A stretch of 64,000 nucleotides of DNA, from assembly GCA_011033025.1 (NCBI GenBank), contig WFMF01000146.1, positions 1 to 64,000 of the forward strand. The letters are read 5' to 3'. A program made the position numbers and the translations under genes. The notes under the pieces were generated by a model that was given only the letters and a program-made list of their open reading frames with translations, did not search any database and had not been told where the DNA came from. Source of the DNA: Beroe forskalii. Lineage: Eukaryota; Ctenophora; Nuda; Beroida; Beroidae. Positions 14,960 to 60,858 of the stretch are shown one piece after another (within the stretch, counting starts at the first letter, position 1; the number at the start of each line of letters is the position of its first letter).

Positions 14960-15074
14960 TATATAGTGCGCTGTCTCTATATAATGCGGGAATCCTCTTA
15001 CCTTGGTAACCATGTTCACATGTTCCATTACCATTATGATTTATAGCGTGATATTACAGTGTCTCTATTTCCCC

Positions 15075-16010
15075 TAGCGGGCTATGGCACTGAGACTCTG
15101 TGACAGTGATTCTGCTACCCCCTTACTTAGCGGGCTATGGCACTGAGACTCTGTGACTGTGATTCTGCTACCCCCTTACCTAGCGGGCTATTGCACTGAG
15201 ACTCTGTGACAGTGAGTTTGTTACCCCCTTACCTAGCGGGCTATTGCACTGAGACTCTAACAGTGAGTCTATTACCCCCTCATCTAGCGGGCTATTGCAC
15301 TGAGACTCTGTGACAGTGAGTCTGTTACCCCCTTACCTAGCGGGCTATTGCACTGAGACTCTGTGACAGTGAGTCTGTTACCCCCTTACCTAGCGGGCTA
15401 TTGCACTGAGACTCTGTGACAGTGAGTCTGTTACCCCCTTACCTAGCAAACTACTGCATTGAGACTCTGTGACAGTGAGTCTATTACCCCCTTACCTAAC
15501 AAACTACTGCATTGAGACTCTGTGACAGTGAGTCTATTACCCCCTTACCTAACATGCTATTGCATTGAGACTCTGTGACAGTGAGTCTGTTACCCCCTTA
15601 CCTAGCGGGCTATTGCACTGAGACTCTAACAGTGAGTCTGTTACCCCCTCATCTAGCGGGCTATTGCACTGAGACTCTGTGACAGTGAGTCTATTACCCC
15701 CTTACCTAGCAAACTACTGCATTGAGACTCTGTGACAGTGAGTCTGTTACCCCCTTACCTAGCAAACTACTGCATTGAGACTCTGTGACAGTGAGTCTGT
15801 TACCCCCTTACCTAGCGGGCTATTGCACTGAGACTCTGTGACAGTGAGTCTGTTACCCCCTTACCTAGCGGGCTATGGCACTGAGACTCTGTGACTGTGA
15901 GTCTGTTACCCCCTTACCTAGCGGGCTATTGCACTGAGACTCTGTGACTGTGAGTCTGTTACCCCCTTACCTAGCGGGCTATGGCACTGAGACTCTGTGA
16001 CAGTGAGTCT
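15075..16010. repeat. 53-bp minisatellite, about 18 copies
   Basis: Tandem units begin TAGCGGGCTATTGCACTGAG and continue ACTCTGTGACAGTGAGTCTG then TTACCCCCTTACC. Most are 53 bp; two are 51 bp because the middle reads ACTCTAACAG. Subtypes are recognisable (TAGCGGGCTATGG, TAGCGGGCTATTG, TAGCAAACTACTG, TAACAAACTACTG), and their order indicates segmental duplication inside the array. No gene overlaps it. Confidence 0.95.
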
Positions 16011-30279: not shown

Positions 30280-33200
30280 ATGACAACCCAAGCGGTCGTC
30301 AGTCGTCCTGAGACCTCCTCGCCCTGCCGACCGGTTTCCAAACGATTCACTCGCTTTGACGAAGCTCATGCTGCTCTTGGCATCAAGGTTATTAAATTTC
30401 TATAAATACTATTTTTTATGTTTTTTTAGCAAAAAAGTTAAAGTACTATTTTTACGTTTATTCTTATATCTGCGAAATAATTGAGTTAGAAAGGTATAAA
30501 CACATTTTATTTTTCTTACTGTTAAACAGATCAGGCCGTGGTAATTTGAGCCGGTTTAAATGTCAAAGATCCCTCTTACAATTACTCAATAAGACAATGT
30601 GCATAGTATAACTGCAGTAACACATTTCAAAACTAAAAACAAATTGCTACTTCAAGTTGCTATTCTTGGGAGTAGTCCCTCTCCATTTCGAGGAACATGG
30701 GAGAGTCGTAGAGACTGCAGTCGATAGTTCCGGGGGCCCTGACCCACCACAAGTAGCCGTCCTTGCCCCAGTCCGCCCCCCAACTGTTCCGGATGTAGAA
30801 GTAGTCCACGTCGTAGCCCACAATAACCACCCCGTGGTCCGGGTCCTCACTGTTCACGCAGTCACTGTAACGCGGGTCAAAGGGCCCTCCTTTGTACTTG
30901 TTCAACTTAGCCCTGGTCGAGTCTATTCCAACCACCACGGGCGAAGTGTTGGCTATGATCTTCATCAGACCCTCCGCGTTCGAGTGCTTGGACCTCACCA
31001 TGGTTATGTCGGTTAGCTCGACCCTGTGGTCCTTGAGGGCGTTCCTAGCCCACTTCCCGTACGAACAGCCGCCGAATCCCTGGTGCTGTCTCATGGGGAT
31101 CTGCCCCTCGTATCCCAGCCTGCCCTCCTTCTTCACATAATCCCAGGCGTGGTGAGGGAAGCCCCCAGTGGAGAAGTAGTCGCCTCCCTGCCCGTAGTAC
31201 ACGCAGTCCACCAGCTCCTGGGTGGACAGCTCCACCAGACTCCCGGACAGAGTCTTGATCTGGGCCTCTATGGGGACGACCGCTGAGTAGGCCCAGCAGT
31301 TCCCACCCACCTGGTCTTTGACGGGTGTTATAGCTCCCAGTGCCCTCCAGTCGTAGCTGACAGGAAGAGTGGAGGCCTGCAGAACAGTCTGGTCGTCAGA
31401 CACTGGTTCGTGTTTGTATTCGTCACAGTCCCCACTGTCTGCGTACGTGTCCAGGTGATCTGTCCTATTGCCCATCTTCAGCAGTGCTTGTTCGCAGTCC
31501 GTCATGTGTGCCATGAACGTGATGCCAGGGGTCCACTCCACTCTAGGATCATCTCTAAGCTCCTGTATCTCAACTAAAAACTCTCTGAATAGCTTCAGTC
31601 TCTCTGATGTCTCGTGACTCCCGTGTGAGACACTGTGCTTAGCTCTGTAGTGGGTGTAGAGGACCCGTAGGACATTGTCCGAGACCAGAGCTGCATCTAT
31701 CATGTTATCCAGATCTACATGGTAGTCTGTCCCCATATCCAAAAAATGAAAAATTTCCTCCGAACCAGAAATTTTTGCCCATTTCGCAGCCTACTCGCTT
31801 CACTCCTTTGCCTATTTTGCTGTCCATCGCTTCGCTTTTGAAATTGATTCCATTTTGCCAGCGAAGCAAACAGGTCTCAAAATTGGCTTTAATGATTATT
31901 ATTAAGCAAAAAGCAATTATTTTGAGTGCAATATCACGAACAGTCAGTCAATTGCATGTAGACTTTGTGATTTCGTGACACTGTCCTTCGACGCAGGCGA
32001 AATTTTCGAAAGTTTTACATGCCTAAGACTACTGTGTCTTTGGCCAATTTAATAACATCATTTGATGACATCAGCCCGCTTCAGGCGAAAATTTGGAAGG
32101 TTCTACCTCTGAGACTGTTTAGATCAATATTCAGTAACATAATTTGATCACAACAGCCCGCCACAGGCGAAAATTTGGAACCTCTTTACATCTGAGACTG
32201 TCTAGGATCAATTCAGCATAATAATTTCATCACAACAGCGCGCTGAGAAAAATTTGGAACCTGTTTCACCTCTGAGACTGTCTAGGATCATTCTAGCATA
32301 ATTTGACCATGACAGCCCGCCGCAGGCGAAAATTTTAAGTTTTATTGAATATGAATTCGGTAAACGTAATGTAAGTAATAATAGGATTGATTACAAGTAC
32401 AATATCCCGTCGCAGGCAAAAATTTGAAAGTCTTACATCTGAAACTGTTTCTGAAAGTATTCCTGACCAATTTAGTGACATCACAACAGCCTGTTGAAGG
32501 CAAAAATTTTCAAGGTTTTTCGCATCTGAATCAATTTAATTTGTTTTCCCTGGGAAGGTGCTCAAATGGAGGGATGATGCCTCTGAAGATGCCGATTCAG
32601 ATTGTGTGTAATGTGTATGCAGGCACGTTTTTGCACATTCCACATTGAATATCTTTCTGATACGGTTTATACATGATCCTAATTTTATCACTGAAAACTG
32701 TTAGTTAGTGCAGGAATGATTTGAAATTTCATTTATAATTGATTCATTCGAATGTAATTAGGGTAAAACACAGTACAGAAAATCAAATTTTCTGTACTAG
32801 CTTTCCGCTGAGAATTTCCTCCGTTTCCACGAAAATTTCCTCCGACTCAAAATTTCCTCCGAACCAGGTTTGCTGGTTCGCGACTTTTTGGACATGGTAG
32901 TCTGTCTTTCCTGGGTCCTCGTGAGCCCGGGGGTCGAAAGTATCGTCGTATTCTACACTGGCACTCACTGCACCATTGACAGTCTGATGTAGTATAACAA
33001 CAAAGAGAAGGATCGACATGTTGAAATTTGAAAATTAAAAGTTATAATGTGAAAGCTCGAAAGGTACTCAAGCTTATAAGTAAGTTAGGCCACGGTGAAA
33101 CCTACTTTTGATTATTGAAGTTTTGATGGTAAGTGATAACTCGATTGATTTAGAAATTCTATTCAATTAGTGTCCCATTGTTTCACAGTCCTAGTACAGT

Positions 33201-36200: not shown

Positions 36201-39200
36201 AAAATTTCTCATCAGTGATAAATGATAATTTTAGATAGAAATCTTTAGCTGTCGTTCTTTCTTATTAGACTGTTAACTTAGCTAGCCCGTTTGACCGTGT
36301 GACTCTGAGTTGAGGCAAAAGTAGTAATATGTACAAGAAGCAACTGTTTAAGAGTATACTATTAGAAGAATGCTATTAAACTAGTCGTAGTGGCTTATTC
36401 ATTGCAGTATATTTTGCACCAGCTGTTGATTACATTTATTGGCTAATCCTGCTGTAAGTCAATAAAGAGATGATCACGCTGGCACAGTGAGATTAGCGAT
36501 GGTCTACGACTCTCAACTCAGGAAGTACATTTCTCATAGTGAGAGTTGAGCTTCATTTCAATACTTCTGTTATATAGTTTGTCTTGCATGAATTTGCGTA
36601 CTGTGAATTTATTTTAGAATAATTTTAGAAATACTTAATAATTCACATTGGTCTCGTACGTAAATTTGATTTGTAGACATCAGACAATGTGTGAGTTAAA
36701 TATGGATCATGGATGGATGATCCAATACTTGAAGAGCTGAAGTGCTTTTAAAGTACATATAATAATCCTGTCTGTGCGTTCTCTGAAGTTACTGTTCACA
36801 CTTGATATTAACGTAAAGTTGGCCCTAATACGCTTTGACGTGATGTTGCTTACTAATGTTGATATATCAACCATTTTTCATGCATATTGCATAACCCCCT
36901 CTTACTTTCGCTGTACTAGTCATGATGAGTTGTTTGTTGTAGAATTATTGTACTTCAAAGATTCAAGAGTTGTACTTCGTACTGTGTGTATTTTGTATAA
37001 ACATATTAAATCTTTGAGACATTTTTGTACTTTTGTAACCGCCGTGTTCTGATGAATCATGCTCAAAAAGGTTGGTAATTCCTTGCTAAATTGTTAACAT
37101 TGTTTCACTCCCCATTTTCAATGCAAAATGATGACTGATTTTATTATTATCAGCAAAATAAAAACAGATAACTGGATTTTTAATGCACCTATAGATCTCT
37201 AGATTCATATTTTGATCTTCATGATACTACATACATTTTGATACATTTTGAAGGGTTTAGCAGGGATCGCAGTTGGGATCAGTGATGTCCACGTACTCCA
37301 TCTCCTCGTTCACAGCTCCAGTCGAGTAAGGAGTTGCTGTTTGGAGGTGTGTAACCCGTAACCGGTGGCTTATCCGGGTATTGTGCGAGGAAGTCTCCAA
37401 GGGCTACTTTGAATGCCTCTAAGGCTGTTGCGGAGTTGACTGATTTAGGGAGTAAGTTCCAGAGACGAGCTGACTTTACCCCAAATGAGTTGTCGTAGGC
37501 AGTTGATACTGAACGTTGTGCCTTGTAGTTGAATGGCAGGATCTTAGCCCGTATTCCAAGACGTTCATTACTGTAGAACTCTAAACCAGTGCTATTTGGG
37601 GCCTTGTTCTGCAGGATCTTCCAAGTATGGATCATCGTGTATCGTTCACGTCTACGCTGGAGAGACATCAATCGCAGCTTCTTAAGCCGATCCCAATAGT
37701 CCATATCTTTGGTGCCAATTATTCGCTTAGTGAAGTAACGCTGGATAGACTCCACTGCCTGGATATCCTTGATTAAGTGGGGATCCCACACTGGGCAACA
37801 GTATTCCAGTCTGCTCCGTATCAAGGACTTGAAGAGGGTCAGCATTGTAAGCTCAGACCTGTCCCGGAAAGTCCCAAGGACCCATGAGGCGATCTTGCGT
37901 GAGTCTCTAACAACATTATACACTTGTAGGGTCCAGCTACAGTTGTCAGTCACCAAAATCTCTCATGGATGAGGTTGGCTGATGAATGTTCCCAGCGGGT
38001 GTCGTGTAATGCCTCAGCTCCGCGGTGAAAGGGAGGTTTCTTGAGTTGTTGAGACAAGTTCATTACCTCAAACTCATCCTGGCGGAGCACCATGTTGTTG
38101 TTCAAAGACCAACTGACATTTGATCGAGGTCTGTCTGTAACAGGGCCTTGCATAACATGGTGATGATCTGACGCATGATCTTAGTGTCATCTGCAAATGC
38201 CAGTGATTTTGACGAGGCAATTTTGATGATCATGTCTATCACGTAGAGAATGAAGAATATGGGACCCAGAACAGTTCCCTGGGAACACCACTATCGACAT
38301 TTGCGAATTCAGACTTTTGCCATCGACAACCACGGCCTGACGTCTGTTGGTGAGGAATTCCTCTATCCATCTAAGCAGTTTGCCTTTGATACCGTAGTGT
38401 TCTAGCTTTGCTAGCAGGATTCTGTGGTCCACTTTGTCGAACGCTTTGCTATAATCCAGATAGATTATATCTACCTCATTACCATCCTTAAGGCCCTTGA
38501 GAATGTAGTCAAAGTGTTCCAATAGTTGAGTTAGGCAACTTCTTGTCTTCCGGAAACCATGCTGATTGTCAGGAAGTATGCCGTTACTTTCTAGGTGGTC
38601 CACTAGACTGTTGCGAATGACTCTCTCGAAGATCTTAATGATGTGAGATGTTATGGACACTGGACGGTAGTTTGCCGGATCGGTTTTATTGCCTTTCTTG
38701 TAGATGGGTGTGATGTACTGCAGTTTCAGCTCATCTGGAATTCTGCCGTTAGAGAGTGAACTGTCCCATAAGAGCCAAAGTGGAAGGGAAAGGGTATCTT
38801 TGCAGCTGCAGAGGATCTTAGCTGGGATGTCATCATCGGGTGCTGCAGAGTAAGGATCTAGCTCCCCTATTGCTGTCTGGATGTCGTCCACAGAGAACTC
38901 TATGTCACTGAGGGTTGCAATTGAGGGGTCTCCCAGAGAATCAATGCAGGCTTGGGGGTCGACATTGTCCGGGTTACTAAACACACTAGTGTATTGAGCC
39001 TGGAGAATCTCAGCCTTCTCTTGCGGATCTGTGCTTAGGGATCCACTATCCTCAAATCGCATTTTTCACTGTTCCGACACGTTTACTATTCGACAGCATT
39101 TTTCGCCAGCCATAATATCACGACTGCGATTGCGAATGTTCACATCATACTATATAAACGCAACCGAGCATACCTTTTTACGGTATAATGGACTTGTGCA

Positions 39201-59712: not shown

Positions 59713-60858
59713 ACTCGAGCGCTGCTGGCACCTTGCTCCGAACGCTGGCAGTCTGCCGCACCGGTTCGAGCGCTGGCGGACTGCAGTGTGCCCGTTCGAG
59801 CGCTGGCGGACTGGTGAGTACCGGCTCGAGCGCTGGCGGACTGCAGGGTGCCAGCTTGAGCGCTGGCGGACTGCAGTGTACCGGCTCGAGCGCTGGCGGA
59901 ACTGCTGTGTGCCGGCTCGAGCGCTCAGCGCTGACGGACTGGTTGTGTGCCTGCTCAAGCGCTGATGGACTGCAGTGTGCCGGTTCGAGCGCTGGCGGAC
60001 TGCGGTGTGCCGGCTCGAGCGCTGGCCGCTGGCGGACCGCAGTGTGTCGGCTAGAGCGCTGGCGGACTACAGTATGCCGGCTCGAGCGCTGGCGGACTGC
60101 AGTGTCTGTGTACCAGCTATAGCGCTGGCGGACTGCGAGTGCCGGCTCGAGCGCTGGCGGTCTGCAGTGTACCGGCTCGAGCGCTGCAGCTGGCGGTCTG
60201 CAGTGTACCGGCTCGAGCGCGCGCCTGGCGGAACTGCTGTGTGCCGGCTTGAGCGCTGACGGACTGCAGTGTGTCGGCTAGAGCGCTGGCGGACTGCAGT
60301 GTGCCGGCTCGAGCGCTGCAGCTGGCGGACTGCAGTGTAGCGGCTCAAGCGCTGGCGGACTGCAGTGTACCATCTCGAGCGCTGACGGACTGCAGTATGC
60401 CGGTTCGAGCGGTGGCGGACTGCTGTGTGCCGGCTCGAGCGCTGGCGAACCGCAGTGTGTCGGCTAGAACGCTGGCGGACCGCAGTGTGCCGGCTCGAGC
60501 GCTGACGGACTGCAGTGTGCCGTTTCGAACGCTGGCGGTCTGCAGTTTAGTTTTACCGGCTCGAGCGCTGGTGGTCTGCAGTGTTCCGTCTCGAGCGCTG
60601 GCGGACTGCAGTGTGCCGGCTCGAGCGCTGGCGGATTGCAGTGTTGCACTGTAGCGGCTCAAGCGCTGGCGGTCTGTAGTGTACCGGCTCGAGCCGAGTA
60701 CTGACGGAACTGCAACTAAACTATTGTGTGCCGGCTCGAGCGGAACTGCTGTGTGCCTGCTCGAGCGCTGACGGACTACAGTGTGCCTGCTCGAGCGCTG
60801 ACGGACTGCAGTGTGCCGGTTCGAGGGCTGGCGGACTGCAGTATGCCTGCTCGAGCAG
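59713..60858. repeat. 30-bp GC-rich minisatellite, about 38 copies
   Basis: The unit begins CGGCTCGAGCGCTGGCGG and ends ACTGCAGTGTGC, so each carries the palindromes CTCGAG, AGCGCT and CTGCAG. Units vary by point changes; some have small insertions (for example CAGCTGGC). Thirty is divisible by three, so frames stay open on both strands (59733-60122 +, 60271-60654 +, 60345-60971 -, and others), giving decapeptide repeats. No start context, splice site or domain supports these as genes, so I treat them as artefacts. Confidence 0.93.

What the first reader, a model, noticed from the sequence alone, without database searches (positions are those of the whole stretch)
31717..32906. Protease gene split by a 1.16-kb insertion with an exact 15-bp target duplication
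The 15-mer ACATGGTAGTCTGTC flanks the insertion, and the reading frame resumes in the same phase after it, so removal of the insertion plus one repeat gives a continuous protease of about 394 aa. No GT-AG pair would remove it exactly. The gene is therefore either freshly broken, polymorphic for the insertion, or spliced with altered residues in the propeptide.
Basis: seen in the sequence. Interest (0 to 1): 0.75.

Follow-up and report, generated by a model that had tools for sequence, protein, structure and literature searches.

The report
Transposon insertion inside a protease gene
A short non-coding jumping-gene copy, one of many in this genome, has landed near the start of a cathepsin-like protease gene and splits it; the duplicated target is most likely 8 bases rather than 15, because one end of the element has come to match the neighbouring gene sequence.

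Summary
A 1,160-base block splits a papain-family (C1) protease gene, both junctions carry ACATGGTAGTCTGTC, and the frame agrees on both sides. The block is a non-autonomous DNA transposon: one own-genome search returned 65 match rows, the window's own and pieces of single copies included (40 of 558 candidates scored). Copies end in CCCATATCCAAAAA / TTTTTGGATATGGG; 16 of 20 fetched loci (window included) have an exact 8-bp target-site duplication, TSD. The window copy is young: 1.1% and 1.3% from its closest copies. The three closest paralogs read through the site uninterrupted.

Correction: the 15 bp are not all TSD. The TSD is AGTCTGTC; the other 7 bp stand where the element's right end ATATGGG should be and read ACATGGT, the bases beside the left TSD. 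Copy C902 probably shows the same at its other end. Likeliest causes: reads of an empty allele in the consensus, or gene conversion; reads would decide.

No GT-AG intron removes the block exactly; inexact in-frame ones have weak acceptors. The assembled allele probably gives a 78-aa product. Superfamily not found. Ordinary in kind.

The parts
31732..32898 (+). Non-autonomous TIR DNA transposon copy (1,167 bp by family reckoning, including the altered right end)
   Evidence: 65 match rows in the own genome, window's own included, 40 of 558 candidates scored; boundaries from the ends of 20 loci
31732..31745 (+). Left terminal inverted repeat CCCATATCCAAAAA, intact
   Evidence: 122+113 exact genome hits of this 14-mer, reversed control 0+1
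32885..32898 (-). Right terminal inverted repeat, canonical TTTTTGGATATGGG, here TTTTTGGACATGGT; 32892-32898 equals host bases 31717-31723
31724..31731 (.). 8-bp target-site duplication AGTCTGTC, left copy
   Evidence: 8/8
32899..32906 (.). 8-bp target-site duplication AGTCTGTC, right copy
   Evidence: 8/8
31717..31723 (.). Host codon bases ACATGGT that the right end of the element has come to match
   Evidence: the three closest paralogs carry similar coding bases here
32046..32520 (.). Degenerate internal repeats of about 82 bp within the element
32892..33019 (-). 5' piece of the protease gene: ATG, likely signal peptide (by eye), start of the propeptide
30660..31731 (-). 3' piece of the protease gene: rest of the propeptide and the peptidase C1 domain
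   Evidence: PF00112 E 2.9e-41, profile 1-207 of 220; PDB matches to cathepsins and papain relatives
31734..31736 (-). ATG supplied by the element's end, in frame with the downstream protease piece (MGTDYHVDLD...)

Best explanation
A short non-autonomous cut-and-paste DNA transposon with 14-bp terminal inverted repeats and 8-bp target-site duplications inserted recently into the propeptide part of a papain-family protease gene that, like its closest paralogs, was a single open frame. The assembled allele is therefore probably broken: the frame from the native ATG runs into the element and stops after 78 codons, and the catalytic part is left without its signal peptide. The apparent 15-bp duplication is the 8-bp TSD plus 7 bp where the element's right end (ATATGGG) reads as the host sequence next to the left TSD (ACATGGT). 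Shown: element family, ends, TSD, uninterrupted paralogs, no exact intron. Inferred: loss of function, recency, and that the end was changed from a host-sequence template (reads of an empty allele during assembly, or gene conversion from it).
For: 65 match rows in the own genome, window's own included, with different flanks in the 20 loci fetched. 27 of 31 elements with two perfect TIRs and 16 of 20 loci found by similarity have exact 8-bp TSDs. TIR 14-mer 235 hits, reversed control 1. 1.1% and 1.3% substitutions from the two closest of 15 copies compared. The three closest paralogs read continuously across the site. Both changed end bases equal the host base at that place, so the host 7-mer and the canonical end agree at 5 of 7; the corresponding 7 bp agree at no more than 3 of 7 in the 31 comparison elements. 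No exact GT-AG intron; of 30 inexact in-frame stop-free ones none has an acceptor above -5.1 on a score that gives 8.0 and 7.9 to two likely acceptors of the neighbouring gene.
Against: No transposase was found inside the listed TIR pairs, so the mobilising enzyme and superfamily are unknown. No empty allele of the downstream flank is in the assembly. No expression data. One inexact in-frame intron uses a donor (77 bases before the element, score 1.9) near the range of two likely neighbouring donors (2.5, 4.0), though with a weak acceptor (-6.2). A true 15-bp duplication made by an end shortened by 7 bp is not strictly excluded.
Confidence: 0.9

Rival explanations
1. On the altered end: the insertion is heterozygous and the end is an assembly artefact; reads of the empty allele, aligned over the near-identical bases at the junction, changed two consensus bases.
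For: Both changed bases equal the empty-site bases, and the host 7-mer agrees with the canonical end at 5 of 7, which would let such reads align. A probable second case lies in copy C902.
Against: No reads available; how this assembly was sequenced and polished is unknown; no alternative haplotype of the downstream flank.
Confidence: 0.5
2. On the altered end: it is real. After cleavage or damage at the right end of the element, repair copied the host sequence of the empty homologue (or of the other TSD side) 7 bp into the element, probably disabling it.
For: Same as for the artefact reading: both changes match the host; the probable case C902 is at the opposite end of the element.
Against: Indistinguishable from the artefact without reads. 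Of two single-base end variants that could be judged, one matches the empty site (C809) and one does not (C518) (by eye), as expected of plain mutation.
Confidence: 0.35
3. On the altered end: the element inserted with its last 7 bp missing and made a true 15-bp duplication.
For: The 15 bp are identical on both sides.
Against: The exact duplications resolved in the family are 8 bp (27 of 31; 16 of 20; the one clear longer repeat is the 14 bp of C902, itself probably of the same making); the excess over 8 equals the missing end bases; the 7 bp still agree with the canonical end at 5 of 7 (chance 1.3-1.4%).
Confidence: 0.1
4. On the gene: the block behaves as a newly gained intron (Introner-like) and is spliced out with changes to the propeptide.
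For: 30 in-frame stop-free GT-AG combinations exist, acceptors being sought from the insert to 60 bases past it; the best uses a near-consensus donor 77 bases before the element. Introners with TSDs and TIRs are known (PMC9860276, passages read).
Against: No exact removal. The best one would drop residues between the signal peptide and the insertion site and add element-coded ones. The paralogs have no intron here.
Confidence: 0.05

Closest known systems
MITE-type non-autonomous elements with 8-bp TSDs, e.g. hAT-related Mar and Vege of Drosophila willistoni (PMC3517528, passages read)
   Same: Short TIRs (11 and 12 bp there, 14 bp here), 8-bp TSDs, no transposase-sized reading frame, many copies
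   Different: Longer (1.16 kb against 610 and 884 bp); TIR begins CCCATATCC, not CAG(G/A)GG as in Mar; insert GC 0.38 against 0.40 for the window, so not marked by AT-richness; no transposase linked to it; no strong TSD consensus by eye in 27 TSDs
hAT superfamily (PMC3942097, passages read)
   Same: 8-bp TSD and short TIRs
   Different: None of 23 Dimer_Tnp_hAT matches lies inside a listed pair of these TIRs (compared by eye)
Merlin superfamily
   Same: 8-9-bp TSD (recalled); 35 matches to a Merlin-type domain in this genome
   Different: None of the 35 lies inside a listed TIR pair (by eye); likeness of TIRs not tested
Introners (PMC9860276, passages read)
   Same: DNA-transposon features, insertion into coding sequence
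   Different: No splice arrangement removes the block exactly

Membership tests
Non-autonomous TIR DNA transposon (MITE-like) | Terminal inverted repeats shared by copies at unrelated sites | tested here: met
   14-bp TIR, 122+113 hits against control 0+1; different flanks
Non-autonomous TIR DNA transposon (MITE-like) | Target-site duplication of fixed length | tested here: met
   8 bp in 27 of 31 and 16 of 20, window included
Non-autonomous TIR DNA transposon (MITE-like) | No transposase coding capacity | tested here: met
   Longest listed ORF wholly inside the insert is 74 aa (minimum 70 aa; not scanned against families); the 78-aa ORF that runs in from the gene has no Pfam match; one 111-aa stop-to-stop frame runs in from the left flank (31643-31978; not scanned)
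hAT superfamily | 8-bp TSD | tested here: met
hAT superfamily | hAT transposase in an autonomous partner with the same TIR | tested here: inconclusive
   23 Dimer_Tnp_hAT matches, none inside a listed TIR pair, compared by eye; the longest pair seen (C547, about 9 kb) could not be read
Merlin superfamily | Merlin/IS1595-type transposase in a partner with the same TIR | tested here: inconclusive
   35 matches, none inside a listed TIR pair, compared by eye
Introner | Splice sites at or near the TSD that remove the element and leave the message intact | tested here: not met
   No exact GT-AG removal; inexact ones have weak acceptors
Introner | Is actually spliced out | not testable with these tools
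   No RNA data
Peptidase C1 (papain family) | Peptidase C1 domain | tested here: met
   PF00112, 2.9e-41, profile 1-207 of 220

The most novel reading that the evidence does not exclude
Ends of these transposons are occasionally overwritten, in the living genome, by the adjoining host sequence through conversion from the empty homologue, which lengthens the apparent TSD (8 to 15 bp here, probably 8 to 14 bp in C902) and would take the copy out of circulation.
Probability: 0.25. Interest if true: 0.45.

Novelty: new member of a known kind. Interest (0 to 1): 0.25.

Why it matters
It shows that the gene is split by a young mobile element rather than by an old intron, and gives the ends and TSD needed to annotate that family throughout this genome. 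If the altered end is real, it would be a simple route by which host repair disarms a transposon; if it is an artefact, it is a warning that TSD lengths read from a collapsed diploid assembly can be wrong.

Tried and rejected
A SINE/LINE origin (variable TSD of about 15 bp, tail) was considered and dropped once the copies showed TIRs and 8-bp TSDs.

The autonomous partner was sought in the longer TIR pairs. C44 (5.35 kb, L069): 5 of its 13 listed frames of 80 aa or more were scanned, no Pfam match up to E 1. C344 (3.2 kb, L071): a reverse-transcriptase ORF (RVT_1), taken as a nested element. C925: 1,201 bases (L084) had no frame over 96 aa. C547 could not be read. Domain searches for hAT, KDZ, MULE, Merlin and P-type RNase H gave 23, 0, 46, 35 and 0 matches; none lies inside a listed TIR pair, compared by eye. 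The KDZ and P searches rang in no control genome, so absence is not shown. One search lists 100 of its 235 places; others (97 hits, control 7; 88 hits, control 0) were used for the rest and allow at most 3 mismatches.

Paper searches: one search found no paper, seventeen of which the ten listed did not bear on the case; led to the three papers of which passages were read. One search's translation of the downstream piece was in the wrong frame and is not used; the frame is. One search looked at donors from base 60 of the gene on and so missed a fair donor 77 bases before the element; searches cover it.

Full report
What is there. On the minus strand of 30660-33019 lies a protease gene in two pieces. 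The upstream piece starts at the ATG at 33019 with a likely signal peptide (by eye); the downstream piece runs to the stop at 30660 and contains a peptidase C1 domain (PF00112, E 2.9e-41; the best matches among solved structures are cathepsins and papain relatives). Between them are 1,160 bases flanked by ACATGGTAGTCTGTC on both sides. The phase is the same on both sides.

What the block is. A search of the genome that holds the window (216 Mb, 1,134 contigs) returned 65 match rows; [quoted passage not shown] The ends of the 20 fetched loci show inverted ends CCCATATCCAAAAA and TTTTTGGATATGGG. The 14-mer occurs 122+113 times, its reversed control 0+1. Among 31 fetched elements with two perfect ends, 27 have exact 8-bp duplications and 4 do not (L003, L048, L075, L082; two of these, L003 and L082, look like 8 bp with a one-base shift, by eye). 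That set favours intact ends by construction. Among the 20 loci found by similarity, window included, 16 have 8 of 8 and 4 do not (L003, L005, L008, L019). The 31 run from 775 to 5,353 bp, and several share with the window copy only the terminal parts. The window copy was compared with 15 others (L005, L008, L010 and L019 were left out): it is 1.1% and 1.3% from L003 and L002 and 5.6-12.4% from the other 13.

The 15-bp repeat. In the window the left end is canonical. The right end reads TTTTTGGACATGGT instead of TTTTTGGATATGGG. With the end placed there, the TSD is AGTCTGTC, 8 of 8, and the two changed bases are both the bases that stand at that place before the left TSD. The host 7-mer thus agrees with the canonical end at 5 of 7; in the 31 other elements the corresponding 7 bp agree at no more than 3, four of these having no clean TSD to measure from; about 1.3-1.4% of 7-mers reach 5. 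The three closest paralogs have similar coding bases at this place, so the host sequence is taken as the older and the element's end as what changed. Of right ends found with up to 3 mismatches, 93 of 97 keep the last seven bases (control 7); of left ends 85 of 88 (control 0); ends changed more than that would be missed. C809 has one changed base that matches the empty site and C518 one that does not; C1014 has no recognisable TSD, and for C348 one end was fetched (by eye). Two matched cases are too few to name a process, and an assembly artefact from a heterozygous site explains them as well as gene conversion does.

What it does to the gene. The three closest paralogs (56%, 56% and 52% identity) lie in open frames of 435, 415 and 404 aa that read through the site as PGKTDYHIDL, PGKVEYPVDL and PGKSNYHIDL. 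The window gene therefore most likely had the same continuous form. From its own ATG the frame enters the element and ends after 78 aa. The element's end gives an in-frame ATG to the downstream piece (MGTDYHV...), which would lack the signal peptide. No intron of exactly the right length has GT-AG ends. With donors from the ATG on and acceptors from the insert to 60 bases past it, 30 GT-AG combinations keep the frame without a stop. Splicing with altered residues is thus unlikely, not excluded.

Fixed or polymorphic. The downstream protease flank has no second haplotype; the next best DNA match is 67% over part of it. The upstream flank was not searched. The assembly cannot say more.

Classification. 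An 8-bp TSD with short TIRs fits hAT-type MITEs (PMC3942097 and PMC3517528, passages read) but also Merlin, P and KDZ (recalled). hAT, MULE and Merlin domains occur in the genome (23, 46 and 35 matches), none inside a listed pair of these TIRs by eye. The superfamily stays open.

Noticed in passing
G000: The protease belongs to a large papain-like family: 116 match rows (114 of 213 candidates scored; a few rows are pieces of one gene), 114 of them without a stop inside the match, which suggests many intronless copies.
   Followed up: partly
window 37279-39065 (-): Two reading frames that resemble parts of a non-LTR retrotransposon reverse transcriptase (by eye; not scanned).
   Followed up: no
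window 59761-60856: Tandem array of a 30-bp unit, about 34 copies, with a 186-bp longer period.
   Followed up: no
window 15073-16010: Tandem array of a 53-bp unit, about 18 copies, 92% matches.
   Followed up: no
L071:919-2178 (+) (C344): A 420-aa frame with a reverse-transcriptase domain (RVT_1, E 1e-20) lies between a pair of this family's TIRs with an exact 8-bp TSD; probably a nested element.
   Followed up: partly
C902:440720-442351 (L008): Left TIR end reads ACAATA instead of CCCATA, equal to the bases after the right TSD if 3 extra bases in the right end are allowed for.
   Followed up: partly
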